A DNA stretch of 64,000 bases from Sphingobacteriales bacterium (GTDB lineage Bacteria; Bacteroidota; Bacteroidia; Chitinophagales; Chitinophagaceae): contig SEFP01000001.1 in the NCBI GenBank assembly GCA_004144185.1, positions 496,001 through 560,000 on the forward strand. The letters are read 5' to 3'. The notes beneath the pieces were generated by a model. It ran no database searches. It had not been told where the DNA came from and saw only the letters and a list, made by a program, of their open reading frames with translations. Below are positions 49,952 through 64,000 of this stretch, in pieces (within the stretch, counting starts at the first letter, position 1; the number at the start of each line of letters is the position of its first letter). The translations under genes and the position numbers were made by a program.

Positions 49952-52900
49952 GGTTGTGGATCAGCATTGCGGGCTTTCTGCCGTTTCTGAAGTCGGAGCG
50001 TCCGTGCTTTTTCAGCACTCTGGAAAATTTCACGGAAGCGGTCGTAGTTTACGTTAACGCCTACACCCGCCCCGGTTTCGATTACTTGTCCCAGTACAAT
50101 ATCGGTGTACTGATTCCGGCGGTAGGTCCGCAGCTGGTAACGTCCGTCTTTGGTCAGCAGATACTCAACCGAAAGATCACCGGCAATCTGACTCGCCGAC
50201 TGATTGTACTGCTGGGGCCCTTCCAGCATAAAGTTGGAGCCTACATTGACCCGCAGCCGGTCGTTGAGCAACCGTTTGGACAGCCCTACCGATAAATCGG
50301 TGCGCTGTGCATAGCTGCCGGTGGTATAGTCTTCCGAAGAATTGACCCCTATGTTTACGTCTACAAACGAAATCAGACTGCTGGCCAGCCGGTTGATCTG
50401 ATCCGTGAGCAGACGACTGGCACTCTGGCGGATGTACCGGTCGGCAACACTGCCTTCGTCTCCGAAATCCTTCAGCGGCGACTCGCTTACGAATCGGTTG
50501 AGGAGCAGCAATGCAAAGACTTGTTTATTGAGTTCGCTTTCGTTGGTCCGCAGCTGCTCCAGCCTGGATTTGACCACATCCCACTGGGAACTGAGCCGGT
50601 CCGGAAGCACGATGTCGAAGCTGATCACCGGTTTCAGCAGCTCGCCCCGCATCCGGAGTTGTACTTCAAACGGCAACTGCTGCCGGTAACGGGTGAGTTC
50701 GGTTTGAGAAGACCCGGCCAACTGATCGGCTACCAGATCGATAGACGCAGTAGTGGCGGTGTAGGTCGCCGTTACATCTACCGTGGCGGTTGTAGGTTCT
50801 CCCGTCCAGGTAATGGTGCTGCCCGGCCGGATAAAAAACTGCCGCTTCAGGAAGTTCAGCGTCATCAGGTACGAGCCGTTTTGCAGCAGGTAGTTGCCGG
50901 TCATGCTAAACTGTCCGCTCCGGTCCAGTCCCAGCGATAGATTGGACGTACCTCGTACTGAGAGGGCATCCCCGTTCCGTTCGTCGATCACAACGGTAAA
51001 CTGCGCTGCGCTGTCGGTCCGCACGTTCAGATCGGCCCGGACGCCCGCCATCTCGGTTCGGGCTTTCAGGGTATCAAATTCCTGATTGACCAGCTGGGAA
51101 TGAGTGGGATTGTCCTGATCTACAAATTTCACGACGCCTACGCCGGCATCGACTTCCGGATTGCTGCTGGGCATCAGGATTTTAAAGTCAGTGCCTTTAT
51201 TAACATCGACTGTACCATCTACGTTGGGCGCTGTCAGCGTACCAGTGATGCGGGTATCGGTAGAGATGTTCAGACGACCGTAAAACATCTGTTCGCTGCC
51301 GGCTTTGCGCTGGGCATTGGCAATCAAAAAGTCTTCTGCGGTTACCTGAAGGTCGAACCGGTATTTCTTGAAGTCGCTCGTCAGGATATCTCCATTGACG
51401 ATGGCTTGTTTGCCGGCAGAGTCCAGCAGTGTAAACCGGTTGAAGCGAACGCCCTGCGGCGTTATAAAAATATTATCAGACGGAACATACAGCCGGGCAC
51501 CCAGCATCGTAGGGGTAAAGAATGCACTGTCAAAGTGCAGATTACCGTTTACATCCGGATCATCGAGCGTTCCCAGCACATCGATATTGCCTTTCAATCC
51601 GCCACCGGCTTCTTCAATCTGGCCAACGCTTAATGCCGGTAGCTTTTGCAGATTCAGATTGCCGATATTTAAGTTCATATCCACCTTCTGACCCGCGAGA
51701 TAGTACACACCGTTGAGACGCATATCATTGCCGTAGCCGCTCAGGGCCACGTTAGCCGTAATCGCATCTTCGGTGGCGTTATCGGCCTGCACCACGATGG
51801 TCCCGATGGTATCCCGGTTATACACCAGATTCTGAACCCGCAGATCGGAGCTAAATGCCGGAATGGTGCCCAGTGGATTTTCCACAGACGCGTATCCGTT
51901 GATCTGACCGGCCAGCTGCAAGGAATCCTGCCCGGCAAAGTTGGTTAACGTAGCGATCTCAAAATTCCGGAAGCGAAGCTCTATCGGTGCCTTCGGATCA
52001 GGTGCGGTACTGTACAAACCAAAACTTTCGTTGTTCCGGATAAAGGCAAACTGGTTGGCTACAATGCCGGCGTCGGAATACTCCAGATAGTTGGAGTCCG
52101 GAACCATCCAGCTGGCATAATTCAGCAGTACGGTGTCCTGCGCCAGAGCCAACCGGAACCCGTCTTGTGGAGTGGGTTGCACCGTACCACTCAATGCATA
52201 CCGGGGTACGTCTGCAATGTCTTTATTGTTGAGCCGGAAATCAACTGTGTTGTTGGCTACGCCTCCCTGAAGGGCTGTCTGGTAAATATGCATCGACGGC
52301 GCATGCACCCCATTGGTCTTCAGGTTGTACGCCAGAAGCGCCGGATCAGCAGTAGTGGCTGTAAACGACAGCGTATCGATCCGGTTTTGCGCATAATACA
52401 ACCGGGGTGATTGCACCCGGGCATCCAGCAGGGTATTGACCGAATTGAAAGCCGTATAAATATTGATCGGTTCCGATCCTTTCAGTTCCGGAACAAAGCC
52501 CAGCAACAGAGGAGAGGACGGACGCGCAACGGCGGTCAGTACAAAATCCTGCGGACGGGTTTGCGTAGGCTTGAAGCCCGGCAACTGGTAATACCGGTTG
52601 ACCAGTTCCATCACAGAGGGTCCGATTTGCGTCAGGGCGAAGTTGCCATACATCAGCGCATTCAGGGCATCGCTGTTGACGCGGACCATATAGCCCGAAT
52701 CGGCACTGCGCAGCGCATATACGTCTATTGAATCGGTAGTAAATTTCTGGCCGTTCACGTCAAAACTGGCATTCCGGACGGTTACGGTTCCGATCGGATT
52801 GTCAGGGTCCAGGCTGCTGATATCCGCTACGATGTTTCCGTTTACGCGGAAGGGCGTGGGCGAAAATCTCAGCGCCTGCAGATCAATGGAACTCAGGTTG

Positions 52901-54999
52901 ATCTTCCCGGCAATAGCAGGCGTTTTGGTATTCAGATCAATCGTCAGCGCAAAATCGGTTCCCAGATTCGGGTCTTTGGACACCCCATTGACTGTTGCGA
53001 TACCGCTTTTCAGAGTTCCGGAAACCGCCACGTCCCGATAATTATAGCCATTGAAATACGCGCTGTAAACCTGCGCATTGTAGGTAGCAGCAGCGGTCTT
53101 CGGATCAAAACCGGCTCCATTGGCCACCACCCGCGCGCTTACCTTACCGATCGTTTGAGGTTGCTTGGTGATAAAGCCCAGATCCAGTCCGTTGGTGACG
53201 GCATCAATCCGGTAGCCACCCTCGCCGTAGTTGCGCATGGCCAGCGTTCCGCGTGCAGTGCCCCGGTTGGTCGTGAGGTTGAAATTGCTCCGGAAATCAA
53301 TTACCTTACCGGTAAACGTCCCGGTCATCGTCAGGCGTTCCGGAATCTGAATGTTATCGGGCAAGGTATTCGGAGGCAGAAAAGTGTTGAAGTCTTGGCT
53401 GGTGGCCCGGAGTTGAGCAATCTTTACGTCATACACCGTGTTGACCGGATCAGGCGAGCCCCGCACCGTACCGGTGAGCCGCACCCGGGTATCCTGCAAA
53501 CCAGCAATATCCAGCGCGTTGAAGCGCAGATTGCGCAGGCGTCCCACGACGTTCAGTTCATTGATGGTGTAGATGGCATTGGGTGCTTTCTGAAACGGCG
53601 GCACGTCTTTCAGCAACGGCGCAAAGGTGATCAGATCCTGTGCAGACAGCTTTGAATTGCGCAGATTTCCCTGGATGAGCATCACGCCCGGATCTTTTGC
53701 CAGTGCATCCAAAGACGGCCAGCCTACGACAATCCGGTCCCGAAGCAGCGTTTTATCGGTTTCTACATACAGATTGTTCAGGTTGATCCCGGAGTCGTTG
53801 TACACAAAATCGGTGCGCAGATTCCGGAGACGGAAGCGGCTGTTCTGTTCGTTCAGTTCCATCCGGTCTACGGACCCTTCAAAGCGGGCCGGTGTAAAGA
53901 CCATATTGTCGCCGTCGAGCAACAGGTTTTGTACATCCAGGTGCGCATAGTCCATCCCGACAGGTTGCCGGCGTTCTCCGTCGTTGTCAAACTTTACGTT
54001 CACATTCGTCAGGGCCAGCTGGTCGATCAGCAGCCGCCAGGGGTTGTTGACGGTTGCCTGAATGGTCTCACCGGTTTCTTCCGCCACCAGCTGTGCAGGA
54101 GGGGTAGGACCAAAGCGCACGACGCCTTGGGTATTGCTCAGGTTAAAGCGGTCCAGATCGATGTACAGTTTTCCCAGATCCAGGGAGTCGACTTCCGTCC
54201 CGAACGCACCGAGCGTAAGCTTGGCAGAAACGTCCTGTACGGTGTTTTCATAGTCGAAGTCAATCTGCTTCAGGTCAATGGTGCCCAGTTTTAGGACCAT
54301 AGCAATCGGCTCGCTGCTTTCAATCTCATGAGCCATCATGCTTTTGGGCGCTTCAATCAGGGGCTTGTATTGCCGGATAACGACCCGGGTATTTTCCAGT
54401 CCGATCTGAGGAACCCCAAACCGGAGCCGGTCGGGATTAAACTCCCGCATCTGCACATCCAGCTTTCCCAGCGAGGTATACAGGTTCATACCGGCCTGGT
54501 CATCCACATACGACGCCACGATCCGGCGCAGTGCCAACCGGTCGACCTCGAAGCGCATACTCCCGGTGGTATCAGTTTTGGTTTGAGAAGGCGACGCAAA
54601 TGCATCAACGATGTACTGGTAGTTAAACGTGGTGTCGGCGCCTGTGCGATAGATATTGGCACGGATGCCTTCCAGCTCCAGATTTTTAACGACCACACTG
54701 CTTTGAAGCAGCTTGAGCAGCTCGATATCCACCGCCACCCGCTCCCCGGCCAACAGCGTATCCTTCCGCTGATCTTCGAGGTAGATGCCTTCCAGCACAA
54801 TTTTTTTAGGAAATGCAATCGACAGGCGGTCGACAGCCACCCGGGTGCCCAGTTTTTTCTCCAGATAGGCAACGGCCTGATTCTTTAAAAAATTTTGTAT
54901 CGCCGGCACCTGGATCAATAGAAAGACAAGCAGAAAGAGTGCAAGCACACTTCCTACCACCCAGGCAAGACCTTTCGTAATTTTACGTATAATATTCAA
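49948..54999 (-). CDS. tamB: Translocation and assembly module protein TamB
   Basis: A 1683-residue AsmA-like protein with an N-terminal inner-membrane helix (about 13-33, WVVGSVLALFLLVFLLIQ) and a long periplasm-spanning beta groove; the C-terminal TamB (DUF490) domain is about the last 350-400 residues (LMTLNFLKRQFFIRPGSTITW, ...LFALLLLNRFVSESPLKDFGD). It forms a bridge with TamL for outer-membrane or lipid transport. The start codon is TTG (54997-54999). The gene overlaps tamL by 4 nt (ATGA). Confidence 0.94.
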   Translation of the reverse strand: MNIIRKITKGLAWVVGSVLALFLLVFLLIQVPAIQNFLKNQAVAYLEKKLGTRVAVDRLSIAFPKKIVLEGIYLEDQRKDTLLAGERVAVDIELLKLLQSSVVVKNLELEGIRANIYRTGADTTFNYQYIVDAFASPSQTKTDTTGSMRFEVDRLALRRIVASYVDDQAGMNLYTSLGKLDVQMREFNPDRLRFGVPQIGLENTRVVIRQYKPLIEAPKSMMAHEIESSEPIAMVLKLGTIDLKQIDFDYENTVQDVSAKLTLGAFGTEVDSLDLGKLYIDLDRFNLSNTQGVVRFGPTPPAQLVAEETGETIQATVNNPWRLLIDQLALTNVNVKFDNDGERRQPVGMDYAHLDVQNLLLDGDNMVFTPARFEGSVDRMELNEQNSRFRLRNLRTDFVYNDSGINLNNLYVETDKTLLRDRIVVGWPSLDALAKDPGVMLIQGNLRNSKLSAQDLITFAPLLKDVPPFQKAPNAIYTINELNVVGRLRNLRFNALDIAGLQDTRVRLTGTVRGSPDPVNTVYDVKIAQLRATSQDFNTFLPPNTLPDNIQIPERLTMTGTFTGKVIDFRSNFNLTTNRGTARGTLAMRNYGEGGYRIDAVTNGLDLGFITKQPQTIGKVSARVVANGAGFDPKTAAATYNAQVYSAYFNGYNYRDVAVSGTLKSGIATVNGVSKDPNLGTDFALTIDLNTKTPAIAGKINLSSIDLQALRFSPTPFRVNGNIVADISSLDPDNPIGTVTVRNASFDVNGQKFTTDSIDVYALRSADSGYMVRVNSDALNALMYGNFALTQIGPSVMELVNRYYQLPGFKPTQTRPQDFVLTAVARPSSPLLLGFVPELKGSEPINIYTAFNSVNTLLDARVQSPRLYYAQNRIDTLSFTATTADPALLAYNLKTNGVHAPSMHIYQTALQGGVANNTVDFRLNNKDIADVPRYALSGTVQPTPQDGFRLALAQDTVLLNYASWMVPDSNYLEYSDAGIVANQFAFIRNNESFGLYSTAPDPKAPIELRFRNFEIATLTNFAGQDSLQLAGQINGYASVENPLGTIPAFSSDLRVQNLVYNRDTIGTIVVQADNATEDAITANVALSGYGNDMRLNGVYYLAGQKVDMNLNIGNLNLQKLPALSVGQIEEAGGGLKGNIDVLGTLDDPDVNGNLHFDSAFFTPTMLGARLYVPSDNIFITPQGVRFNRFTLLDSAGKQAIVNGDILTSDFKKYRFDLQVTAEDFLIANAQRKAGSEQMFYGRLNISTDTRITGTLTAPNVDGTVDVNKGTDFKILMPSSNPEVDAGVGVVKFVDQDNPTHSQLVNQEFDTLKARTEMAGVRADLNVRTDSAAQFTVVIDERNGDALSVRGTSNLSLGLDRSGQFSMTGNYLLQNGSYLMTLNFLKRQFFIRPGSTITWTGEPTTATVDVTATYTATTASIDLVADQLAGSSQTELTRYRQQLPFEVQLRMRGELLKPVISFDIVLPDRLSSQWDVVKSRLEQLRTNESELNKQVFALLLLNRFVSESPLKDFGDEGSVADRYIRQSASRLLTDQINRLASSLISFVDVNIGVNSSEDYTTGSYAQRTDLSVGLSKRLLNDRLRVNVGSNFMLEGPQQYNQSASQIAGDLSVEYLLTKDGRYQLRTYRRNQYTDIVLGQVIETGAGVGVNVNYDRFREIFQSAEKARTLRLQKRQKARNADPQP

Positions 55000-55153
55000 A
55001 AGCAGTCAATTTCAGTTTTAAAACTTACTTACTATAATACTCCTGGCAGCACTTTCCGGAAAACGGGAGGCTCCTTTTACATAAAAATGATTCCCGGACC
55101 TGAAGTGGCATGACTTTGGCGAAGGTCGGTTGTTCTTACTTGATACACATTCT

Positions 55154-56092
55154 ATGAAAATATACTGTTTGCTTGCAGGAATATTTCTGATTGCCTTTGG
55201 TTCCTGTACGCCTCCCACCACCACCGGCCAACGTGCTAAAGACAGCATCAGTGCAGAGCCACGGCCCAATATGGAAGCACTGGCCCCGCAGCCAAAAGAC
55301 ACCCTTCCTCAGGCCATCCCCCCTGCAATGGATATTCAGTACAGTTATTTTCTTTTTAAAGACAGCGGACGGGCTCGGATGCAAGCCTATACGCCTGCGC
55401 AGCGAAAAGTTATTTACGCCTTAAACCGCGTCGACGGAACCAGTCTGTCGTTGCTGGATACCGTGCTGGTGCCCAATCAGTTTCCGGAAGATATTCGGGC
55501 CATCAGCCCTTTCCCCCAACAGGTGCCTGGGTTACGGGACATCCACAAACTGGTGCTCTTTTCCTATCCGATTCAGGCGTTTGCCGCTTACGAACGGGGC
55601 ATTCTTCAGCGCTGGGGACCTACCAGCATGGGCCGCAAAGACAAACCGACTCCGGAAGGCCTGTATTTTGCCAACTGGAAAGCCGAGGAGACCATCAGCA
55701 CGTTTGAGGACGAATGGGAGCAGAACTGGACGGTCAATATTGAAACCAAAGCCGGGATCGGCTGGCATCAGTATGCCTTGACTGGCAAGCCCGCCTCCCA
55801 CATGGGCCTACGGTTGCTGGCAGCAGATGCCCAGTGGCTGTATGACTGGGTCGATACCTGTATGCTGGAATCCGATACTGTTGTGAGCGCACCGGGCACC
55901 CCTACCCTTGTATTCGGGCAGTACCCGTGGGGTAGTCGCCGGCCCTGGATGCAGCTACTCAGCAATCCGGCAGCCAACAATCTGTCGGCAGAGCAGGTGC
56001 AACAGCTGGTTCAGCCCCACAGCACTCAAATTATGAACGCACAGCAAAAACGAACCTTAGCAACCCCTGCTTCCGGAAACAGAACGTCCTAA
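55154..56092 (+). CDS. L,D-transpeptidase-like (YkuD-fold) lipoprotein lacking the catalytic Cys
   Basis: A 312-residue lipoprotein: signal with lipobox FGSC (Cys18), then a YkuD-like domain (about 120-260). The family pattern is visible in LQRWGPTSMGRKDKPTPEGLYFANW and HQYALTGKPASHMGLRLLAADAQWLYDWV. The active-site segment, normally S-H-G-C-hydrophobic-R, reads SHMGLRL (215-221), so the catalytic cysteine is absent. It may be a non-catalytic binding protein. The start at 55154 (MKIYCLLAG) is chosen for the signal peptide; a longer frame starts at 55130. Confidence 0.8.
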   Translation: MKIYCLLAGIFLIAFGSCTPPTTTGQRAKDSISAEPRPNMEALAPQPKDTLPQAIPPAMDIQYSYFLFKDSGRARMQAYTPAQRKVIYALNRVDGTSLSLLDTVLVPNQFPEDIRAISPFPQQVPGLRDIHKLVLFSYPIQAFAAYERGILQRWGPTSMGRKDKPTPEGLYFANWKAEETISTFEDEWEQNWTVNIETKAGIGWHQYALTGKPASHMGLRLLAADAQWLYDWVDTCMLESDTVVSAPGTPTLVFGQYPWGSRRPWMQLLSNPAANNLSAEQVQQLVQPHSTQIMNAQQKRTLATPASGNRTS

Positions 56093-56122
56093 GAAACTGC
56101 TGGTAGCACCCCAAAGCATTTT

Positions 56123-57226
56123 TTAGAACCAGTTTTTACGTTTAAACCAGATCAGCATAAACAACGGGATGATAAACATCAGCGTCACCATGATGATGAA
56201 CCCATCCTTCTGATGCGCCAGCGGAATGATGTCAAAATTCATCCCGAAAATGCCTCCGATCACCGTTGCCGGTGCCAGCAACGTAGTGATAATAGTAAAC
56301 ACTTTTACGATCTCATTAGTCCGCATGTTGACCTGGTTGAACGTTAGCTCCAGCAGCGTCGTGGTTCCGTCGCGCATCGATTCTGCATTGTCCATGGCAT
56401 GCAGAATGTGATCGAGAATGTCTTTGTAATATTTCTCGTTGGTGTTTTCCATCAGGGTGCTGTCACAGCTGATAAGGCCATTAATCACCTCTCGCACCGG
56501 CGCGATAGCTCGGGCAACGGTCAGGATTTCGCGACGCAGTAATGCTATTTTGGCTGCGCTGGCACCCCGCCGATCCTGTAAAATTTCTTCTTCCAGCCGT
56601 TCAGCCCGCTGATCCAGCCGCTCCATAATGCCGAAATACGAATCCACGATCACATCGAGCAGGGTATAGAGCAGGAAATCGGCCGTGCCGGTGCGCAACT
56701 TGCTGCCGCCGGAGCGCAACCGGATGCGGATGGGATCAAACACATCCCGTTCTGCTTCTTCCTGAAACGAAATCACGCCGCCCGGCACCAGCACCAGACT
56801 GACCTGTTCGCACTCTACCATGCCAGTGTTCTCGTTGTAATACAGCATCGGCAACAGGCAGAACACCATGTTACCGATCTCGTCCATCTTGGCGCGCTGC
56901 CCTACATTCTGAATGTCTTCTATCAGCAGTGCATGAATCTTAAAATGCTTCGCCAGCGTTTCCAGTAGGCTTTTATTTACGCCATCCACGTTGAGCCAGG
57001 ACACCTGCTGTTCCGGAAACTGAATAGCTTTTTCCTGCGATACGGATTCTTCGGTCAGATGGTAGGCATCATAGCTGAACCGGGTCAGCTTGATTGCCCC
57101 ATCCGGTGACGGTCGCTGCACCGGACGGGCCGGATTGTATTTTTTCCTGCGCCGCCCGGTAGGCTCGGCACTGATAAATTCTTCGGCTATCCGGGCCAGT
57201 TTGCGAACGGGTCTGAGAAGCGACAT
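56123..57226 (-). CDS. corA: Magnesium/cobalt transporter CorA
   Basis: A 367-residue divalent-cation channel of the CorA family. The large cytoplasmic domain (about 30-290) precedes two C-terminal TMs; the signature GMN lies in GGIFGMNFDIIPLA at the end of TM1. The C-terminus LIWFKRKNWF is typical. A TTTG/TTCG-type -7 element (GATCTTCG) lies 7 nt before the ATG on the minus strand. Function is well supported by the GMN motif; no operon partner is seen. Confidence 0.95.
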   Translation of the reverse strand: MSLLRPVRKLARIAEEFISAEPTGRRRKKYNPARPVQRPSPDGAIKLTRFSYDAYHLTEESVSQEKAIQFPEQQVSWLNVDGVNKSLLETLAKHFKIHALLIEDIQNVGQRAKMDEIGNMVFCLLPMLYYNENTGMVECEQVSLVLVPGGVISFQEEAERDVFDPIRIRLRSGGSKLRTGTADFLLYTLLDVIVDSYFGIMERLDQRAERLEEEILQDRRGASAAKIALLRREILTVARAIAPVREVINGLISCDSTLMENTNEKYYKDILDHILHAMDNAESMRDGTTTLLELTFNQVNMRTNEIVKVFTIITTLLAPATVIGGIFGMNFDIIPLAHQKDGFIIMVTLMFIIPLFMLIWFKRKNWF

Positions 57227-57292
57227 TGTGCTACGAAGATCAATCGCATTTCCGGTTTATGTTCGTGTCAATTTTCCGTTCCTTTTCACCCT

Positions 57293-57955
57293 ATGAAGAA
57301 ATCTATTTTATTGGTGCTGCTGTTGAGCCTGGGTAGCACCGCCTTTGCCCAGAAAAACAAGGTCCGCATTGAAACCGTCTACGGTCCGATCGTCATTGCG
57401 CTCTACGACGGCACCCCACTCCACCGCGACAACTTCTTAAAGTTGACCAAAGAGCGGTTTTACGACTCGCTGTTGTGGCATCGGGTCATTCCGGGCTTCG
57501 TGATTCAGGGCGGCGATCCCGACAGCAAGCATGCCAAACCGGGTGCGCCGCTGGGAGAAGGCGAATACGGACAGCGCATTCCCGCCGAAATCAAACCGGA
57601 GTATTTCCATAAGCGCGGGGCCGTAGGGATGGCGCGCGACAACAACCCGAATAAAGAATCCAGCGGCTGCCAGTTTTACATCGTTATAGGTAAGCCGTTC
57701 GATAATGCCGCACTGGATAAAGCCCAGCAGCGCAGCGGCCATACCCTTCCGGAAGCGCAACGGGCCGTGTACCACACTCTGGGCGGCACGCCGCATCTGG
57801 ACGGCAACTACACGGTATTTGGAGAAGTTATTTCCGGTATGGCGGCTGCCGACAGCATTGCTGCGCAACCACGCAATGCCGCTGACCGGCCCAACACGGA
57901 TAGCCGGATCTTAAGCATCCGGAAGGTGCGCAAAAAGTTTTTGGGTATCTTTTAA
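57293..57955 (+). CDS. Exported cyclophilin-type peptidyl-prolyl isomerase
   Basis: A 220-residue cis-trans prolyl isomerase with a signal peptide (about 1-20, ending AFAQ), so periplasmic. The cyclophilin fold is clear: FYDSLLWHRVIPGFVIQGGDP, then ESSGCQFYIVIG and GNYTVFGEVISGMAAADSIA. An insertion (about 125-160, GKPFDNAALDKAQQRSGHTL region) between conserved blocks is a feature of Bacteroidota homologues. It converges with the tubulin-like gene and shares its hairpin terminator. Confidence 0.94.
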   Translation: MKKSILLVLLLSLGSTAFAQKNKVRIETVYGPIVIALYDGTPLHRDNFLKLTKERFYDSLLWHRVIPGFVIQGGDPDSKHAKPGAPLGEGEYGQRIPAEIKPEYFHKRGAVGMARDNNPNKESSGCQFYIVIGKPFDNAALDKAQQRSGHTLPEAQRAVYHTLGGTPHLDGNYTVFGEVISGMAAADSIAAQPRNAADRPNTDSRILSIRKVRKKFLGIF

Positions 57956-57964
57956 AAACCACCA

Positions 57965-57998
57965 AAAGGGTCCGGCACACATGTGTACCGGACCCTTT
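57965..57998. terminator. Terminator hairpin between the cyclophilin and the tubulin-like gene
   Basis: A 17-bp inverted repeat (57965-57981 with 57982-57998, one C-A mismatch), with AAAA/TTTG ends, serves both converging genes. Confidence 0.85.
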
Positions 57999-58021
57999 GA
58001 ATTAGTTATAAAACAGATCAG

Positions 58022-59485
58022 CTACAGTTTGATCCGGTCAGCGACCAGCTCGGCAGTGGTTTTGCTGAAAAGGGTCAGCAGCTTGGCTTCCGGTTTTAGG
58101 CCTTTGTTTTCTCTCTGTACCACCGCATTGAGGGTATCCACGTATTTCTTCAGCCCTTTGACGGCCAGGAAGCCGGGTTTCTCTTCAAAGCCTTCTACAA
58201 TCTTCAGCAGATCGGCTTCGCCCACCGTGCGCTTAAACGGCCGGAAGCCGATACCGCTTTTTTCCATTTCTTCCAGCCACTGCTCGTAAAAGCTGTTGAA
58301 GGTGGACAGGTTGCTTAAAAACTCACTGTTCAGATTTTTGCGTTGCAGCTTTTCGGTTTCGTCCTTGGCCCAGCGCCCGTCTTCCTGCGTTGCATAGTAG
58401 TCGCGGAAAAAGCGTAGAAATAAATAATACTGCGTCAGTGCTTTAGCGGCTGTAGCCCGGCTGCGGCTGCCGAAGTGGCCAAACCGGACCGGCGACATCC
58501 CGTCTTTCAATCCGAATTCGAAATACCGCGGTGCCTGTGCAACTCCATTGGGTGCTTTTAGAGTACTGCGGTCGGCCTGCATAAAATCAAAGATGGACAG
58601 GGCTGCGGCCAGCTCGATAAAATGTGCTTTGTTGCGCTGCTCCTGCGCACCGTCAGCACCGGCTTGGGTATTCCCCAGAGTATCGCCGATGTAATACAGC
58701 GCGTTGAGGCGTGGAGTGCTATTGCCCGTCAGGTTTTTGGCGTAGTAGGCCAGCGCGTCCTTTGTTTTGGCGATAAAACTGTTGCTGTCGATTACGGTAC
58801 GGCCGCCGGTGGCGTCAATGTCGAAGTACGGCAAGACCGTAACCGCGCCTATCGGCATCTCCTGCAACCGTGCATGGTTGGGCAACGAACTATCGGCATT
58901 CCGGATATTTTTGACCAGCAGCGGAAAGCCTGCAGCACCGGTGCCGCCGAAAATGGACGAGATGATAAACACCCGGTCGTTTTCGTTGACCGACGCAGCA
59001 AATTTCCGGAATAGATCGCTCTCGCGCATCCGGTTCAGCACCACGCTTCCGATGTGTGGATTGCCTTTAAAGCCGACTTCCATATCAGAAGCCAGGTTTT
59101 TCTCGGAGTACAGCAAGGATGCCAGCGCCCGATTGGCCCGGCTCATGCTTTCGTAGCCTACAAACTCTTTGAATCGCTTGCCTGTGATGCCTTCCAGATC
59201 GAACCGGAACTGGTCTTCGGCACCACCGCCATCGCCCAGTTCATTAAGCGATTTGATCTCGGTTCCAAAAAAGCCAGTGGTGCTTCCGGACGTCCGTTGC
59301 ACCGCCTGGTAGCGTTTCAGGATTTCGATGGTGCGGGTGAGGTCGCCATTCGCGGTGTCCGGATCGATCAGGATCGGAATCACCGCTTCGGTATTGGCTA
59401 CCGGCATTCCGGAAGCCAGCAGCAAAGTAAAGGCTTTGAGCACCCGGGCTCCGGTACCGCCAATGCCAAAAACGTAAAGTGCCAT
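58022..59485 (-). CDS. Divergent tubulin/FtsZ-like protein
   Basis: A 487-residue cytoplasmic protein with Rossmann-like tubulin/FtsZ features: an N-terminal glycine-rich FGIGGTGARV (6-15) where FtsZ binds the nucleotide phosphates, AVIPILIDPDTANG (34-47), and IFGGTGAAGFP (178-188), which resembles the tubulin signature GGGTGTG. It shows no helicase or kinase motif and no TM. The C-terminal half (about 290-487) is unassigned. It is the last of three closely spaced genes, 23 nt after the membrane protein. The family is inferred from two motifs; it could be another nucleotide-binding protein. Confidence 0.68.
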   Translation of the reverse strand: MALYVFGIGGTGARVLKAFTLLLASGMPVANTEAVIPILIDPDTANGDLTRTIEILKRYQAVQRTSGSTTGFFGTEIKSLNELGDGGGAEDQFRFDLEGITGKRFKEFVGYESMSRANRALASLLYSEKNLASDMEVGFKGNPHIGSVVLNRMRESDLFRKFAASVNENDRVFIISSIFGGTGAAGFPLLVKNIRNADSSLPNHARLQEMPIGAVTVLPYFDIDATGGRTVIDSNSFIAKTKDALAYYAKNLTGNSTPRLNALYYIGDTLGNTQAGADGAQEQRNKAHFIELAAALSIFDFMQADRSTLKAPNGVAQAPRYFEFGLKDGMSPVRFGHFGSRSRATAAKALTQYYLFLRFFRDYYATQEDGRWAKDETEKLQRKNLNSEFLSNLSTFNSFYEQWLEEMEKSGIGFRPFKRTVGEADLLKIVEGFEEKPGFLAVKGLKKYVDTLNAVVQRENKGLKPEAKLLTLFSKTTAELVADRIKL

Positions 59486-59508
59486 GAGGAAGTTGTGTTC
59501 CGGAAAAG

Positions 59509-59946
59509 TTACAAAGGAATGTATCGGTTGTTACGGCTGCCCCATTTCAGCGTAAACGTGCAGATCAGCGACATAAGGATCGAATAGACCGCCGACTCAG
59601 TTGCAAAGGCATGACAGTCGCCTTCGTTAAACGGCAAGGTAACGTTGACATTGCCGCTGTGCAGCATATTGTACGCTTTGTAGAACGCGATCCCGTAAAC
59701 GAGCGCGGCCGCCAGTAGTACATGCATGCCCCACCACCGTTTCCGGTCGGCTCCCGGCCGGTTGAACAGGCCATAGTAATAGTTTACGAAGAATACGAGG
59801 TTGATCCCTATGATCCACAACAGCGTATACAGAAACTCATTGGGCTGCGTATACCCGTTGAGGATATCCGTCCGGTCGATGCCCTTCAGATGCTGCTCCA
59901 GGTTATTGGAAGGCTGCAGTCCAGGCAGGTAATACGAAAAAGGCAT
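59509..59946 (-). CDS. Three-TM membrane protein of the tubulin-like cluster
   Basis: A 145-residue inner-membrane protein with three predicted helices (about 38-60, 72-94 and 117-134). It is unlike any family I know. It lies 32 nt after the vWA-like lipoprotein and 23 nt before the tubulin-like gene, so it probably anchors or links the two. The periplasmic or cytoplasmic side cannot be told by eye; the NRPGADRKRW stretch is basic and may face the cytoplasm. Confidence 0.75.
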   Translation of the reverse strand: MPFSYYLPGLQPSNNLEQHLKGIDRTDILNGYTQPNEFLYTLLWIIGINLVFFVNYYYGLFNRPGADRKRWWGMHVLLAAALVYGIAFYKAYNMLHSGNVNVTLPFNEGDCHAFATESAVYSILMSLICTFTLKWGSRNNRYIPL

Positions 59947-59978
59947 GAGGGAGAAAGGGGAGTAAAAACAAATAGCTA

Positions 59979-61244
59979 CTATCGGGTGACCTGTACGGGC
60001 GGCAGCTCAAAAATATAGGGTGTCGGGTTAAAGCCTTCTGCAAATCCACGAATGAGGTAGGCCAGGCCATACGTCTTGGCCCATTCGGCCGGTTTCTTGC
60101 TGATGGGTCCGGGATCTTCACTGCTGTACTGCCCTACCCAAACCGGTAAACTGTTTTTCAGCTTCACCCCAACGGTGTGCGCCGCGCCCAGGGTTGGATT
60201 ACTGAGTTGCAACACATGCGTATAACGGCCATGAGCTTTGGCGGTTACCTTGATCTCATACCCGGCAGGCGTTACTTCATAATTGGACGGATTCATCTTG
60301 TAGGATTCTGTAGCCGGAACGGCACTCAGGTCGGCCTCTACCTGCAACACAAAATTGTTGGCCGGACCATTTCTACGGGCTTTTTTGGCGATGAGGCTTT
60401 TGGCACTTTCCGGATCGGCCGCATAATACTCCAGGCCACCAGCCGGCGGCAATAAAGTAGCAGCAGGTGTAGCCGCTTTAGGCCCCAGCAGCACCGACTG
60501 CGCATAAAACGGCTGTCGGGCAGCCAGCTCATCCGATAAGCGGGTGATGGCCGTTGGTGGACCCAGCAGAATGATAAAATACGGACGGTCACCGGTAATC
60601 TTTTCGCTGCCACCAGCCGGCGGGTAGTAGATACCATTCCGGAATGCCGAGGTATCGCGCAGAATCAGGGCAGCCAGTGGGGATTTTCCGAAGCGGCGAC
60701 TGACGATGGTTTGCAGATGACTTTGCTGGGAGGCCAGATTGCTGCCGTTGGTTTTAGTATCCACCACACAGTCGCTCACCAGTACCGAAAGGTCATCCGG
60801 ACCGGTGGCGTTCAGCACCGTGGCCAGGATGGTCGACAGATCGGAAGTCGTACGGCTGGCTTTACCGGCTGCATGCTTGTCTACTGCGGCTTTGCTCAGA
60901 TTGCTGAAATAGGTGGCTACCTGCTCATCCGTCGCATTCGGAAATACCTCATAGGCAACATTGGCAATCTCATAGATCGAAAAGCTTTTCCTGCCTTCAT
61001 GCGTGTTGAGAACCGCCTGGAGCTGGTTGATGGCACTGTTGAACCGCGTCGTACCAGCACTCAGGTAAGCGTCTGTACTTGAAGAGGTTTCGAGGTAAAA
61101 CTGGTAGTGGAGCGCCGGAAAGGGCTGGGTCGTTGCCGCAGCCGTTGTACCGGTGGCAGTAGTACCGGTTGCGGGCGGATCAGCCGTACAGCTTTGCAGG
61201 CCTACGGCCAGCAACAGGGCAATGGAAGAAGAGCGGAGCGACAA
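59979..61244 (-). CDS. vWA-like lipoprotein of the tubulin-like cluster
   Basis: A 421-residue lipoprotein with lipobox LQSC (Cys19), a Thr/Ala-rich spacer, then a vWA-like domain (about 45-270). The MIDAS pattern appears as FYLETSSSTDAYL (Glu52-x-Ser54-x-Ser56, where D-x-S-x-S is usual), with a Thr near 132-133 and Asp158 in DDLSVLVSDCVVD. The rest is beta-rich (SYKMNPSNYEVTPAGYEIKV). The frame runs on to 61766, but that part crosses the opposite lipoprotein gene; no ATG precedes the signal, so TTG at 61244 is the start. First gene of the three-gene unit. Confidence 0.72.
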   Translation of the reverse strand: MSLRSSSIALLLAVGLQSCTADPPATGTTATGTTAAATTQPFPALHYQFYLETSSSTDAYLSAGTTRFNSAINQLQAVLNTHEGRKSFSIYEIANVAYEVFPNATDEQVATYFSNLSKAAVDKHAAGKASRTTSDLSTILATVLNATGPDDLSVLVSDCVVDTKTNGSNLASQQSHLQTIVSRRFGKSPLAALILRDTSAFRNGIYYPPAGGSEKITGDRPYFIILLGPPTAITRLSDELAARQPFYAQSVLLGPKAATPAATLLPPAGGLEYYAADPESAKSLIAKKARRNGPANNFVLQVEADLSAVPATESYKMNPSNYEVTPAGYEIKVTAKAHGRYTHVLQLSNPTLGAAHTVGVKLKNSLPVWVGQYSSEDPGPISKKPAEWAKTYGLAYLIRGFAEGFNPTPYIFELPPVQVTR

Positions 61245-61367
61245 GAGGGAAAAGCTAAATACGAAGAAAGAGAAATCAGGGTCCTTATCCGGCTGTTCCG
61301 GAACCGGAATCACCGGATGCAGACTGTCTTCCCAAAAAAAAGTCAGAACTGCATCCGCAGCAGTTTT

Positions 61368-61375
61368 CGAAATTA
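61368..61375 (-). promoter_or_regulatory. Candidate promoter of the vWA-TM-tubulin cluster
   Basis: On the minus strand TAATTTCG lies 18 nt after TTG, near the Bacteroidota -33/-7 spacing, about 120 nt before the TTG start codon. The leader contains a short hairpin (AACTGC/GCAGTT) and an 8-nt T-tract. Confidence 0.45.
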
Positions 61376-61437
61376 GGCAACTCCGTTTGAAAACAACCGG
61401 CACCCGGTCGCTTCCGGAAAATACGCAGTTTATCGTA

Positions 61438-61468
61438 TTGCCTTCGGAGCCCGGTCTGCCAACCTTTG
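61438..61468 (+). promoter_or_regulatory. Candidate promoter of lipoprotein gene 61506
   Basis: TTG (61438-61440) and AACCTTTG (61461-61468) are 20 nt apart, close to the Bacteroidota -33/-7 layout with one change in TAnnTTTG. Confidence 0.4.
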
Positions 61469-61505
61469 CAGCATCAATCTCTTCACCCCCTTTTTCCACC
61501 ACACC

Positions 61506-62051
61506 ATGACTGTAAAATCCATTCTCCTCGCTGCCGGTACGCTGGCTGTTCTCGCCACAACGTCCTGCAAAAAAGACGACAACGGCAGTGGCGGCACCAA
61601 CACCGCGCCATCTGCATCCAGCCTCGCAGCCAGTACCGGGTATATCACGTTTAATACGGACAAAGCATTTAACGGCGGCACCACCCACACGTACAAAGAA
61701 GCGGCTCCGTATGATCAGGTAAAATGCGTCCACAGCGGAAACGCGTCCAACTTTGCCGGAATCCATACCGTTGTTTCCGGAACCTCTGCTACCGTTTCAA
61801 CCGCATCTCTTTTTGTAACTGCAACCGGTGCCACCAAGCTGGACTTCAGTAAGAGTGATGCCGTTTTCTCCATTGCTGTTGCCACCAGCGCAGGAACCGT
61901 TCAGGAAGCCTATGCTATGGATGAAGGCACACTGGAAGTAACCAAACTGAGCGCTACCGAGATCGAAGGTACCTTCTCCGGAAAGGCCATCAATGACGAT
62001 GCTAAAACCAGTATCAACGTCACCAGCGGCAGCTTCTCGGGTAAGTTCTAA
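61506..62051 (+). CDS. Small lipoprotein of unknown function
   Basis: A 181-residue lipoprotein with lipobox TTSC (Cys21) followed by KKDDNGSGG, a spacer typical of Bacteroidota surface or periplasmic lipoproteins. The rest is a predicted beta-sandwich of about 140 residues (TGYITFNTDKAFNGGTTHTY, ...EIEGTFSGKAINDDAKT). It resembles small DUF6252-type lipoproteins in layout, though I cannot assign the family. It diverges from the tubulin-like cluster across 261 nt and ends at a hairpin. Confidence 0.78.
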   Translation: MTVKSILLAAGTLAVLATTSCKKDDNGSGGTNTAPSASSLAASTGYITFNTDKAFNGGTTHTYKEAAPYDQVKCVHSGNASNFAGIHTVVSGTSATVSTASLFVTATGATKLDFSKSDAVFSIAVATSAGTVQEAYAMDEGTLEVTKLSATEIEGTFSGKAINDDAKTSINVTSGSFSGKF

Positions 62052-62074
62052 AACCTGTTGAATCCCAGCTGTTC

Positions 62075-62107
62075 AATCGCTTCCGGAGGCCTTCCGGAAG
62101 CGATTTT
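62075..62107 (+). terminator. Terminator built around TTCCGGA palindrome copies
   Basis: AATCGCTTCCGGA (62075-62087) pairs with TCCGGAAGCGATT (62093-62105) around a 5-nt loop, then a T-tract. One arm contains an exact TTCCGGAA (62092-62099). Confidence 0.85.
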
Positions 62108-62165
62108 TCATTGCGACTTCTTTCTACCTACCGATAAACACACGGGTGGCTCCAACACCTGCCAC

Positions 62166-62173
62166 TACCTTTG
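62166..62173 (+). promoter_or_regulatory. -7 promoter element of the flavin reductase gene
   Basis: TACCTTTG matches TAnnTTTG exactly and is 7 nt before the ATG at 62181, which supports that start and suggests a nearly leaderless mRNA. Confidence 0.55.
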
Positions 62174-62180
62174 CGGGCCT

Positions 62181-63086
62181 ATGCGTATTCTTCCCGGTGA
62201 TATCAAAACCAGTCAGCTCCACGCTTACCTGTTAGGTGCTGTTTCGCCCCGTCCGATTTGTTTTGCGTCGACGCTCGATGAAGACGGCACACCGAATCTG
62301 TCGCCCTTCTCGTTTTTCAACATCTTTGGTGCCAAGCCACCGATTCTGATTTTCTCCCCGGCCCGGCGCGTACGCGACAATACCACCAAGCATACGCTGG
62401 AAAACGTGATGCGCAGCAAAGAACTGGTGATCAATGTAGTCAGCTATGCCATGGTGCAGCAGATGAGCCTTTCGTCCTGCGAATACCCGGCCGGTACCAA
62501 CGAATTTCTGAAAGCCGGGTTTACCCCGGTGGAAAGTTCCATCGTCAAGCCGTTCCGGGTGGCCGAGTCGCCTGCCCAGCTGGAGTGTCGCGTGTTACAG
62601 GTCATCGAAACCGGTACCGAAGGCGGAGCGGGCAACCTGGTGATCTGCGAGCTGGTTTGCCTGCATCTCAACGAAGCGGTTCTTAACGAGGCGGGCCAGA
62701 TCGATCCGCACAAAATTGATCTGGTCGCCCGTATGGGGGGCGATTTTTATTGCCGCGCTTCTGGCGATGCGGTGTTCACCGTTCCAAAACCGAACACTAC
62801 GCTCGGTATCGGTATCGACGCGCTTCCGAAAGCTATCCGGACCAGCCGCATCCTGACCGGCAACCATCTGGGACTGCTGGGCAACAGCAGCGCCCTGCCC
62901 ATCGTCGAAACCATTACCAACGACGAGCGGCTGGTCGAGTTACTGCGCGAGTATGATACGCATCCGGAAGCACTCCGCCATGCCTTGCATCAGTACGCAG
63001 CCGAACTCCTCGACAAAGGCGATGTAGAAAAAGCCTGGGAAGTGTTGCTGAGCGACAGCGATGAAGGCAAAGAACTGATGGGCTAA
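62181..63086 (+). CDS. Flavin reductase family protein
   Basis: A 301-residue FMN-binding split-barrel protein: [21 protein letters not shown], then [20 protein letters not shown] and a C-terminal helical extension (about 200-301) common in the Bacteroidota members. Flavin reductases supply reduced flavin or act as flavin-linked oxidoreductases; the partner is unknown. The ATG at 62181 (MRILPGDIK) is preferred over the frame extension to 62058 because a promoter element lies 7 nt upstream. Confidence 0.9.
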
Positions 63087-63136
63087 CCCTTGCGGCTACA
63101 CAAGACTCAAAAACCGGTAGCAGATTCGAATCTCTT

Positions 63137-63604
63137 ATGCGATTGGTGATTCAACGGGTTTCCGAAGCCTCGGTACAGATCGGCGGTGCCGTTCATGCCG
63201 CGATCGGCAAAGGCCTGCTGATCCTGATCGGCATCCATGAATCGGACACTGAAGCCGACGCGATCTGGCTGGCCGGCAAAGTGGCCCGGCTGCGCATTTT
63301 CAGCGATGCCGAAGGCAAGATGAATCAAAGTCTGGCGGACATTGGCGGAGCGGTACTGGTAGTGAGTCAGTTTACCTTGTACGCTCAGTACGAAAAAGGC
63401 AACCGCCCTTCGTTCATCGAAGCCGCCCGTCCGGAAAAAGCCATTCCACTCTACGAGTTTTTTAAGGCGCAGTTAGAAGCAGCCCTTAGCCAACCTGTTC
63501 ATTCCGGAATCTTCGGGGCGGATATGCAGGTGGCGCTCCTCAATGACGGACCCGTAACCATTGTTATGGAACATCCCAAGCAATACGCTGCTCATGGACA
63601 CTAG
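63137..63604 (+). CDS. dtd: D-aminoacyl-tRNA deacylase
   Basis: Dtd removes D-amino acids from mischarged tRNAs. The 155 residues are full length: [17 protein letters not shown] at the start, the [20 protein letters not shown] motif (catalytic Gln/Phe/Thr region) and [10 protein letters not shown] near the end. It overlaps tadA by 11 nt in a different frame, so the two genes are coupled. Confidence 0.96.
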
Positions 63605-64000
63605 CCGCTCGCATGAAGACTGGATGGCCATTGCCCTGCAGGAAGCCCAACAGGCCTACGACGCCGGTGAGATTCCGGTAGGTGCCGTAGTGGTGTGGGG
63701 CGACAAAATTATTGCCCGGGGTCATAACCTGACCGAAACCCTCAACGACCCGACTGCCCATGCTGAGATGATTGCGCTCACCAGCGCCTTCAATACGCTG
63801 GGCGGTAAATACCTGGGCGAGGCCACGCTATACGTGACGCTGGAACCCTGCCTCATGTGCTGTGGAGCGCTGTACTGGAGCAAGATCGGGCAGATTGTTT
63901 ACGGAGCCGCCGATCCCAAAAACGGGTATGGACGCATTACACAAGACCGGTGGCCATTTCATCCCAAAACCACCCTCCATACAGGCGTATACGCAACGGA
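63594..64000 (+). CDS. tadA: tRNA adenosine deaminase TadA, 3'-truncated by window end
   Basis: TadA converts A34 to inosine in tRNA-Arg. The ATG at 63594 overlaps dtd by 11 nt. Visible residues include HAEM (zinc His and catalytic Glu) in [11 protein letters not shown] and the zinc-binding PCLMC in [11 protein letters not shown], then [12 protein letters not shown], the usual TadA sequence. At least 135 residues are visible; the window ends before the stop. It could also be a related nucleoside deaminase, but the DPTAHAE start and small size favour TadA. Confidence 0.92.

What the first reader, a model, noticed from the sequence alone, without database searches (positions are those of the whole stretch)
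58022..61244. Compact vWA-like lipoprotein, membrane protein and tubulin/FtsZ-like protein cluster
Seen: three minus-strand genes with gaps of 32 and 23 nt; a lipoprotein with an E-x-S-x-S MIDAS-like motif (Glu52), a conserved-looking Asp158 and lipobox Cys19; a 145-residue three-TM protein; a 487-residue protein with GIGGTGARV and GGTGAAG. Established: glycine-rich GGGTGTG is the tubulin/FtsZ signature, and divergent FtsZ/tubulin-like families tied to membrane and vWA proteins have been proposed to remodel membranes. Inference: a cytoskeletal protein coupled through a membrane protein to an outer-envelope vWA adhesion or sensing lipoprotein. The combination is not a named system I can place, so it is the best candidate here for an undescribed one.
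Basis: partly seen in the sequence, partly recalled or inferred. Interest (0 to 1): 0.8.

Follow-up and report, generated by a model that had tools for sequence, protein, structure and literature searches.

The report
Split tubulin–actin envelope machine
Three neighbouring bacterial genes (a lipoprotein, a small membrane protein and a tubulin-like protein) look like one detached piece of a larger cell-envelope machine of Bacteroidota, for which I found no description, that pairs a tubulin-like with an actin-like protein and often carries relatives of a proton-driven motor.

Summary
The three genes and their motifs are real. The 487-aa protein (TUB) is predicted to have a tubulin/FtsZ GTPase fold (pTM 0.91; the 50 best solved matches are tubulin-superfamily proteins or complexes holding tubulin). 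The lipoprotein (LIP) has a vWA-like fold with an E-x-S-x-S MIDAS. They are not a three-gene system. In 80 named relatives the usual same-strand order is LIP–TM3–TUB–ACT–C4, often followed by MotA- and MotB-like genes and exported proteases or nucleases. ACT is a ~1150-aa protein with actin/Hsp70 ATPase motifs. In the window's own genome the set is scattered: ACT–C4 lies about 480 kb away, a MotA homologue elsewhere, MotB was not found, and MotA lacks conserved channel residues. The sister species shows the same breakup plus a ~28-residue MotB remnant. In 198 class-level genomes, full-length TUB and ACT occur in exactly the same 8. Window genes are under purifying selection (dN/dS 0.06–0.14). 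Closest known kind: the FtsZl1–vWA–OmpA clusters of Makarova & Koonin; differences are no coiled coil, an actin-fold partner and a Zorya-like motor. Function is inferred: a nucleotide-driven trans-envelope sensor/actuator. Defence is the main rival, weakened because TUB is in all 36 genomes searched of one genus (Spirosoma).

The parts
59982..61244 (-). LIP: 421-aa vWA-like lipoprotein, TTG start, lipobox Cys19 (stop codon 59979-59981)
   Evidence: AlphaFold pLDDT 87.6; PDB matches mostly vWA proteins; conserved family, 51 rows aligned
61077..61091 (-). MIDAS-like E-x-S-x-S of LIP (residues 52-56)
   Evidence: E52, S54, S56 at least 90% conserved in 51 rows
60771..60773 (-). Asp158 of LIP, candidate MIDAS Asp just after a beta strand
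   Evidence: invariant in 51 rows; strand 151-157 in the model
59509..59946 (-). TM3: 145-aa membrane protein, three hydrophobic stretches by eye
   Evidence: same cluster in 78 loci; HMM match 6.9e-25; alignment A9
58022..59485 (-). TUB: 487-aa tubulin/FtsZ-superfamily protein
   Evidence: pLDDT 86.1, pTM 0.91; 50 best Foldseek rows are tubulin/FtsZ/CetZ/TubZ entries or complexes holding tubulin; Z 16.3, 3.1 A over 205 residues to CetZ 3zid
59450..59467 (-). T1 loop GIGGTG of TUB (residues 7-12)
   Evidence: G9, G10, G12 invariant in 59 rows
58928..58951 (-). T4 GTP-binding loop FGGTGAAG of TUB (residues 179-186)
   Evidence: F179-A184 invariant in 59 rows; FGGTGA in 81 of 81

Best explanation
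The three genes encode one end of a trans-envelope machine. SHOWN by sequence or structure prediction: an envelope lipoprotein with a vWA-like domain (LIP), a small membrane protein (TM3) and a tubulin-fold protein with intact GTP-binding loops (TUB). They belong with a ~1150-aa protein carrying actin/Hsp70 ATPase motifs (ACT), a signal-peptide/one-TM protein (C4) and, in many relatives, a MotA/ZorA-like plus MotB/ZorB-like pair and exported hydrolases. INFERRED: GTP- and ATP-driven assembly of TUB and ACT on the inner face of the inner membrane, held by TM3 and C4, changes the state of a peptidoglycan-anchored proton motor where there is one. This passes force or a conformational signal across the periplasm to the vWA lipoprotein (ligand capture) and gates local periplasmic proteases or nucleases. 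It would act as an envelope-integrity sensor and actuator, not as a divisome. In this organism and its sister the motor half has been dismantled (MotB not found or only a remnant, MotA channel residues gone) and the gene set scattered, while LIP, TM3, TUB and ACT stay under selection. So the nucleotide-driven vWA/TM/TUB/ACT core is the indispensable part and the motor an optional drive.
For: Predicted fold of TUB and LIP. ACT: phosphate-1 DxGTTNT in 76 of 80 and phosphate-2 DxGGGTxD in 78 of 80; weak Pfam FtsA in 19 of 33; MreB and Hsp70 as best profile hits in the PDB. Gene order in loci with enough flank: TM3 77 of 78, LIP 72 of 73, ACT 76 of 79, C4 66 of 72, MotA 52 of 69, MotB 44 of 66, one of four hydrolases 36 of 64. 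TUB and ACT full length in the same 8 of 198 genomes, including two where they are not adjacent. Distance matrices of TUB and ACT correlate, r 0.947, n 72. MotB-family Asp motif in 48 of 48 loci. Split in G000 and G002; MotB remnant plus Asp protease in G002; MotA residues lost in both. dN/dS 0.06-0.17 for five of six genes. Core without motor elsewhere: TUB in 36 of 36 Spirosoma genomes but a full MotB in only 1 of the 36, about 8.5 kb from that genome's second TUB copy; G004 and G022 have LIP, TM3, TUB and ACT but no MotA or MotB anywhere.
Against: No experiment exists; every functional step is inference. The T7 catalytic motif of FtsZ could not be recognised in TUB, so GTP hydrolysis and polymerisation are not established. 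The vWA match is moderate: best Z 8.1, at the level the tool warns may be only a common arrangement, and sequence profiles find no vWA. ACT's fold was not predicted and rests on motifs. Full-length TUB is absent from 190 of 198 class-level genomes, which looks more like an accessory system. The mirror-tree correlation also arises from shared ancestry. No link of the hydrolases to the core was shown beyond gene order.
Confidence: 0.5

Rival explanations
1. Anti-phage or conflict system of the Zorya type: the machine senses envelope breach by an injecting phage, TUB/ACT assemble as a threshold switch, and the swappable hydrolases attack the incoming phage or its DNA in the periplasm.
For: MotA and MotB homologues hit PADLOC ZorA2 (1.7e-9) and ZorB1 (6.8e-12); variable tail of Asp protease, trypsin, SNase or EEP nuclease; a TIR gene beside one copy, a GajA gene near another, an Abi_2 gene beside ACT-C4 in this genome; patchy presence, 8 of 198; a distant Ter-linked branch; a second, motor-bearing copy in 1 of 36 Spirosoma genomes.
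Against: TUB in 36 of 36 genomes of one genus, with the same upstream neighbour family (c11) in 11 loci, ten of them titled Spirosoma and one a Spirosoma MAG; one match among plasmid records, on a 1.77-Mb Prevotella replicon; no phage-record match for ACT; no ZorC/D/E among the proteins scanned; defence-gene enrichment near the loci was not measured against a control.
Confidence: 0.3
2. Membrane-remodelling cytoskeleton of the FtsZl1 kind proposed by Makarova and Koonin, bending or budding the envelope.
For: Same combination of tubulin-like protein, vWA protein and OmpA-domain protein (PMC2875224); weak Tubulin_2 and Tubulin Pfam hits in 57 of 59 members.
Against: No coiled-coil extension; no P-loop GTPase or kinase recognised among the core families scanned; a MotA-type protein and an actin-fold partner are present instead. 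Remodelling itself was a prediction in that paper (sections read).
Confidence: 0.12
3. Surface adhesion or gliding apparatus: motor-driven movement of a vWA adhesin.
For: vWA-like domain on a lipoprotein; 5:2-type motors power gliding elsewhere, and vWA-motor transducers are proposed in PMC12204202 (passages).
Against: MotA not detected in 17 of 69 loci, MotB in 34 of 36 Spirosoma genomes at most a short weak match and none here; exported hydrolases do not fit. Gliding genes were not searched for.
Confidence: 0.06

Closest known systems
FtsZl1-vWA-OmpA gene neighbourhoods (Makarova & Koonin 2010, PMC2875224)
   Same: Divergent FtsZ/tubulin-superfamily protein encoded with a vWA protein and, in several genomes, an OmpA-domain protein; membrane association predicted
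   Different: TUB is 487 aa with no long coiled coil and no recognised GTPase or kinase partner; it is paired with an actin/Hsp70-type protein and often a MotA-MotB-type pair with exported hydrolases
GAP1-N2 GTPase-centric conflict systems with tubulin and vWA, or with HSP70 (Kaur et al. 2020, PMC7159879)
   Same: Tubulin-domain proteins plus membrane vWA proteins; HSP70-fold proteins in a sister theme
   Different: Those are built on DO-GTPases, GAP1 and FNIII proteins, and the tubulin theme is described from firmicutes and actinobacteria; these components were not recognised here, and tubulin and HSP70 are in separate themes there
Zorya anti-phage systems (ZorAB motor; PMC11890865)
   Same: Related MotA/MotB-type pair with a conserved aspartate motif and OmpA-like domain; a nuclease effector (ZorE) in type II
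   Different: Far below NCBIfam ZorA2/ZorB1 cut-offs; no ZorC/D/E among the proteins scanned; adds tubulin- and actin-type proteins and a vWA lipoprotein
vWA force transducers on TolQ-like motors (PMC12204202)
   Same: vWA domain in the periplasm associated with an ion-driven motor
   Different: There the vWA protein is itself anchored by a TM helix that contacts or enters the motor; here it is a lipoprotein and the motor, when present, has its own MotB-like protein
FtsZ-FtsA pair (recalled)
   Same: Tubulin-fold and actin-fold nucleotide proteins acting as a pair at the inner membrane (analogy)
   Different: TUB and ACT are distant families encoded with envelope proteins and absent from most genomes sampled

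Membership tests
Tubulin/FtsZ superfamily | Tubulin-type GTPase fold | tested here: met
   AF2 model pTM 0.91; 50 best Foldseek rows all from the superfamily or complexes holding tubulin; Z 16.3 to 3zid, 3.1 A over 205 residues. A prediction, not a solved structure
Tubulin/FtsZ superfamily | Glycine-rich T4 GTP-binding loop | tested here: met
   FGGTGA in 81 of 81; invariant in A2. It is FGGTGAAG, not the exact GGGTG(S/T)G
Tubulin/FtsZ superfamily | T7 catalytic loop (NxDxxD/E; recalled) | tested here: inconclusive
   No such motif seen by eye after the putative H7 (residues 289-303) in P0003 or the consensus; no residue-level structural alignment available
FtsZl1 (Makarova & Koonin) | N-terminal FtsZ domain followed by extended coiled coil and helical C-terminal domain (majority architecture) | tested here: not met
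   487 aa, longest model helix 23 residues
FtsZl1 (Makarova & Koonin) | Neighbouring vWA gene | tested here: met
   LIP vWA-like fold, upstream in 72 of 73 loci
FtsZl1 (Makarova & Koonin) | Pfam Tubulin_2 (link to FtsZl1 is recalled) | tested here: inconclusive
   21.2 bits against a cut-off of 27 for P0003; E up to 0.01 in 57 of 59 members
FtsZl2 | Proteobacterial, FtsZ domain plus ~300-aa mixed alpha/beta C-terminus, no gene partners | tested here: not met
   Strict gene partners; most of the 80 best relatives are Bacteroidota by record title
vWA domain | vWA/Rossmann-like fold | tested here: met
   Foldseek hits under 1e-3 are ArnAB and a bacterial vWA protein, then BatB; realigned rows nearly all vWA chains (domain identities recalled), best Z 8.1, 3.7 A over 156: moderate support, near the tool's warning level; no Pfam vWA hit
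vWA domain | Canonical MIDAS DxSxS | tested here: not met
   Glu replaces Asp in P0001 and in 64 of the 71 with the pattern, of 77 examined
Actin/Hsp70/FtsA superfamily (ACT, outside the window) | Phosphate-1 and phosphate-2 motifs | tested here: met
   76 and 78 of 80; FtsA Pfam in 19 of 33, below cut-off in the three shown
Actin/Hsp70/FtsA superfamily (ACT, outside the window) | Actin-like fold | not tested
Zorya | ZorA and ZorB at curated level | tested here: not met
   24.8 bits vs cut-off 700 and 25.3 vs 400 for one representative pair
Zorya | ZorC/ZorD or ZorE effector | tested here: inconclusive
   None among the 9 proteins scanned with PADLOC; other neighbours not scanned
GAP1-N2 conflict systems | DO-GTPase, GAP1 and FNIII proteins | tested here: inconclusive
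   None recognised in the families scanned with Pfam; other neighbours not scanned
Anti-phage function | Protection from phage | not testable with these tools
   needs plating assays

The most novel reading that the evidence does not exclude
A previously undescribed class of trans-envelope nanomachine in which a tubulin-fold GTPase and an actin-fold ATPase form an obligate pair that drives, or is driven by, a proton-powered MotAB-type motor and a vWA lipoprotein to control exported proteases and nucleases. In the window's lineage the motor was lost and the nucleotide-driven core kept running from scattered loci; Spirosoma keeps a motor-less core in the whole genus.
Probability: 0.35. Interest if true: 0.9.

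Novelty: new variant of a known kind. Interest (0 to 1): 0.72.

Why it matters
Apart from FtsZ-FtsA and the eukaryotic cytoskeleton, a tubulin-fold and an actin-type protein that are gained and lost together are unusual (recalled). Here such a pair is linked to envelope proteins and often to relatives of an ion-driven motor. Several carriers are cultured named strains (Spirosoma, Flavobacterium, Hymenobacter, Chitinophaga, Terrimonas), so the old FtsZl1 question of what divergent tubulins do with vWA and OmpA partners becomes directly testable. Natural motor-less versions (the window's genus, Spirosoma) separate the core from its drive.

Tried and rejected
A true three-gene system: rejected, because ACT, C4 and MotA homologues occur elsewhere in the same genome. 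Decaying remnant: rejected by dN/dS of 0.06-0.17 in five genes; for C4 dS is saturated and identity only 43%. My first ORF caller hid genes under longer antisense ORFs (TUB in L066, L068 and L008/L014 and MotA in L099 were missed); HMM searches of stop-to-stop frames corrected this, and the order counts quoted come. My first regular expressions were too strict (ACT both motifs 39 of 80, TUB both 50 of 81); looser ones gave 76 and 78 of 80 and 81 of 81 for the T4 loop. A profile search of the PDB with TUB gave only CetZ 3zid at E 0.17 and with LIP an unrelated hit at E 0.021, so the folds rest on the models. SrfB as specific family of ACT: only 2 of 33 weak hits, not pursued. Empty site in G001/G003: the flank gene was found but at a contig end or in another setting, so undecided. 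Bacteroidota promoter consensus (recalled): 0 matches in the window, 1.09 expected. Rfam: none at gathering level in 55000-64000. Viral contigs: none with P0003, 3 loci with the alignment, each with an ACT gene next to TUB. The G002 MotB remnant lies 205 bases from a contig start and could be an assembly fault. In the ACT survey at most three candidates per genome were scored.
Full report
WHAT IS THERE. The window carries three co-directional minus-strand genes: LIP (TTG 61244, stop 59979), TM3 (59946-59509) and TUB (59485-58022), with gaps of 32 and 23 nt. Downstream lies a convergent cyclophilin gene and upstream a divergent gene with a weak DUF6252 hit. By Pfam, P0003 gives only weak Tubulin_2 (1.9e-4, 21.2 bits, cut-off 27) and Tubulin (1.8e-3) hits; LIP and TM3 give none. 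NCBIfam gave only weak unrelated hits and PADLOC none for the three.

STRUCTURE. From a 59-row alignment TUB was modelled at pLDDT 86.1, pTM 0.91. The 50 best PDB rows are all tubulin, FtsZ, CetZ or TubZ entries or complexes that hold tubulin (best E 9.2e-5); realigned, the best is CetZ 3zid at Z 16.3, 3.1 A over 205 residues, and the rows cover mainly residues 1-349. The C-terminal ~140 residues are scarcely tested. LIP (51 rows) was modelled at pLDDT 87.6; Foldseek lists two ArnAB chains (Sec23/24-like), a bacterial vWA protein and BatB-type proteins first, and the realigned list is nearly all chains that I know as vWA-fold, best Z 8.1 with 3.7 A over 156 residues. The tool warns that Z under 8 may mean only a common arrangement, so this is moderate support. 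The family has Glu at the usual first MIDAS Asp.

DISTRIBUTION AND NEIGHBOURHOOD. Of 59 genomes searched, the window's own included, 7 have TUB. Most are Bacteroidota by title; exceptions are a Leptospiraceae, a Sulfuricurvum, a Williamsia and an Acetatifactor record, some of which may be mis-binned. HMMs built from the neighbour clusters were run on all stop-to-stop frames. Among loci with enough flank, on the same strand: TM3 within 400 nt upstream in 77 of 78, LIP within 2.5 kb upstream in 72 of 73, ACT within 600 nt downstream in 76 of 79 (misses L014, which is the sister species with the split, and L027 and L030, which have extra ORFs in between), C4 66 of 72, MotA 52 of 69, MotB 44 of 66, and at least one of four hydrolase families 36 of 64. 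The hydrolases are a retropepsin-like Asp protease (3.2e-15), a trypsin-like protease (2.6e-24), an SNase (7.5e-23) and an endonuclease/exonuclease/phosphatase (3.5e-10) in the one representative of each scanned; by eye they begin with signal or lipoprotein-like sequences.

THE PARTNER PROTEINS. ACT (~1144 aa) has the actin/Hsp70 phosphate-1 motif in 76 of 80 and phosphate-2 in 78 of 80. FtsA is the commonest weak Pfam hit (19 of 33), and MreB and Hsp70 head the PDB profile list (best E 2e-4). C4 has, by eye, a signal peptide, one TM and a conserved C-terminal domain. The MotA-like representative has a MotA_ExbB hit just below threshold (22.5 bits, cut-off 22.9) and PADLOC ZorA2 at 1.7e-9; the MotB-like one hits ZorB1 at 6.8e-12 and OmpA at 3.9e-6. 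The motif FWxSYxDLMT with its Asp, in a looser form, is in 48 of 48 loci, D24 invariant in 20 aligned.

THE SPLIT. In the window's genome ACT is at G000:C1:1037689-1041153, about 480 kb from the cluster (window = C1:496001-560000), followed by a short C4. A MotA homologue lies at C1:1221549-1222817, and an Asp-protease domain related to the hydrolases sits in a 399-aa protein with a signal-like start on C15. No MotB was found. In the sister species G002, TUB-TM3-LIP and ACT-C4-MotA are on different contigs, and a ~28-residue MotB C-terminus followed by an Asp protease gene lies near the start of contig C215. In both species MotA has lost the conserved residues A218, M219, S222 and T229 and has a gap at G183 (numbering of L018; that these line a channel is inferred from MotA homology). 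I infer that an ancestral complete operon broke up in this genus and lost motor function. G001 (83% complete) and G003, of the same genus, lack TUB, ACT and MotA.

THE MOTOR IS OPTIONAL. G004 and G022 have LIP, TM3, TUB and ACT but no MotB or MotA anywhere. In the genus of L039 (Spirosoma by its title) all 36 genomes held have a TUB match, 35 of them full length and G286 interrupted, while the MotB family has a full match in only 1 of 36, G269, about 8.5 kb from the second TUB copy of that genome, and a weak partial match in one more. So in that genus the core without motor is universal among the genomes held, and a motor-bearing copy is an accessory.

LINKAGE. In 198 class-level genomes, full-length TUB (E below 1e-100) was found in 8 and full-length ACT (E below 1e-200) in the same 8; ACT lies next to TUB in 6 of them, far away in G000, and on another contig in G173. 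Two more genomes (G078, G209) carry a diverged TUB. The ACT profile matched 170 of 198 genomes, but outside these 8 only by short hits of the kind FtsA or DnaK would give. A distant branch in G009 has a TUB relative (29% identity), a 1270-aa ACT relative (9.5e-23), two TerD genes and an OmpA gene, which suggests that the TUB-ACT pair is the oldest core. Distances of TUB correlate with ACT at r 0.947, LIP 0.917, TM3 0.890 (72 loci each), C4 0.903 (54), MotA 0.843 (50) and MotB 0.656 (43); none of 1000 permutations reached any of these, but common descent alone would also give this.

SELECTION. Between the window's genome and its sister: dN/dS TUB 0.061, TM3 0.142, LIP 0.096, ACT 0.142, MotA 0.172; C4 not estimable. 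dS is 1.4-3.0, so the values are rough.

FUNCTION. Against a purely sporadic defence role: the Spirosoma result above, the same upstream neighbour family in 11 loci, one matching record of 72,556 plasmid records, a 1.77-Mb Prevotella replicon, and no phage record matching ACT. For defence: the Zorya-like motor, exchangeable hydrolases, nearby TIR (PF13676 1e-15; PADLOC PDC-S66 1.6e-16), GajA (1.7e-200) and Abi_2 (1.9e-56) genes, and patchy presence. I therefore commit, at 0.5, to a nucleotide-driven trans-envelope sensor/actuator for envelope integrity, with defence as the main rival at 0.3. The order of events, filament formation, force transfer and hydrolase gating are all inferred.

COMPARISON WITH WHAT IS KNOWN. 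PMC2875224 (abstract, first part of the text, the genomic context section, the concluding remarks and find passages read) describes FtsZl1 with vWA, GTPase, kinase and OmpA neighbours; its supplements were not opened, so an overlap with some loci here cannot be excluded. PMC7159879 (abstract, outline and passages) describes tubulin-vWA and HSP70 themes in GTPase-centric conflict systems. PMC12204202, PMC11890865, PMC12904381 and PMC7824862 were seen as passages; other papers only in listings. Ten full-text searches of the open library pointed to no paper describing TUB with ACT and a motor; most subscription papers and bioRxiv were not covered.

Noticed in passing
L098 9037-9945 (G000:C1 about 1036-1037 kb): An Abi_2 abortive-infection family gene (PF07751, 1.9e-56) converges on the ACT-C4 pair in the window's genome.
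   Followed up: partly
L009 4423-5232: A TIR-domain gene (PF13676, 1e-15; PADLOC PDC-S66) lies directly upstream of LIP-TM3-TUB-ACT in G004.
   Followed up: partly
L100 8681-12000: A Gabija-type GajA gene (PADLOC 1.7e-200) and a helicase-like ORF lie a few genes downstream of the ACT-C4-MotA-MotB half of the operon in G008, whose other half is on another contig.
   Followed up: no
L012 5506-15767: A Ter-linked branch: TUB relative, distant 1270-aa ACT relative, two TerD genes and an OmpA-domain gene in a row.
   Followed up: partly
L111 205-866 (G002:C215): A ~28-residue MotB C-terminal remnant followed by an intact Asp-protease gene, near a contig start.
   Followed up: yes
L120 7982-9181 (G000:C15): A 399-aa protein with a signal-like start whose C-terminal part is a retropepsin-like domain related to the operon's Asp protease.
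   Followed up: partly
G269:C1:7519191-7529741: One Spirosoma genome has a second TUB copy with a MotB-family gene about 8.5 kb away, beside the genus's usual copy.
   Followed up: no
G286:C1:2930047-2931515: One Spirosoma genome has a TUB copy interrupted near residue 350, with an in-frame TAG in the second piece.
   Followed up: no
L044, L051, L030, L027: ACT appears as two ORFs in L044 and L051, and extra ORFs separate TUB from ACT in L030 and L027; not checked for sequencing error or insertion.
   Followed up: no
L112 2896-5052 (G003:C15): An AAA ATPase-like ORF next to an HNH-like ORF (both by eye) lies beside the flavin-reductase-like gene that is near the cluster in the window; not searched.
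   Followed up: no
window 49948-54999: A 1683-aa TamB-family gene (PF04357, 5.5e-64), ordinary.
   Followed up: no
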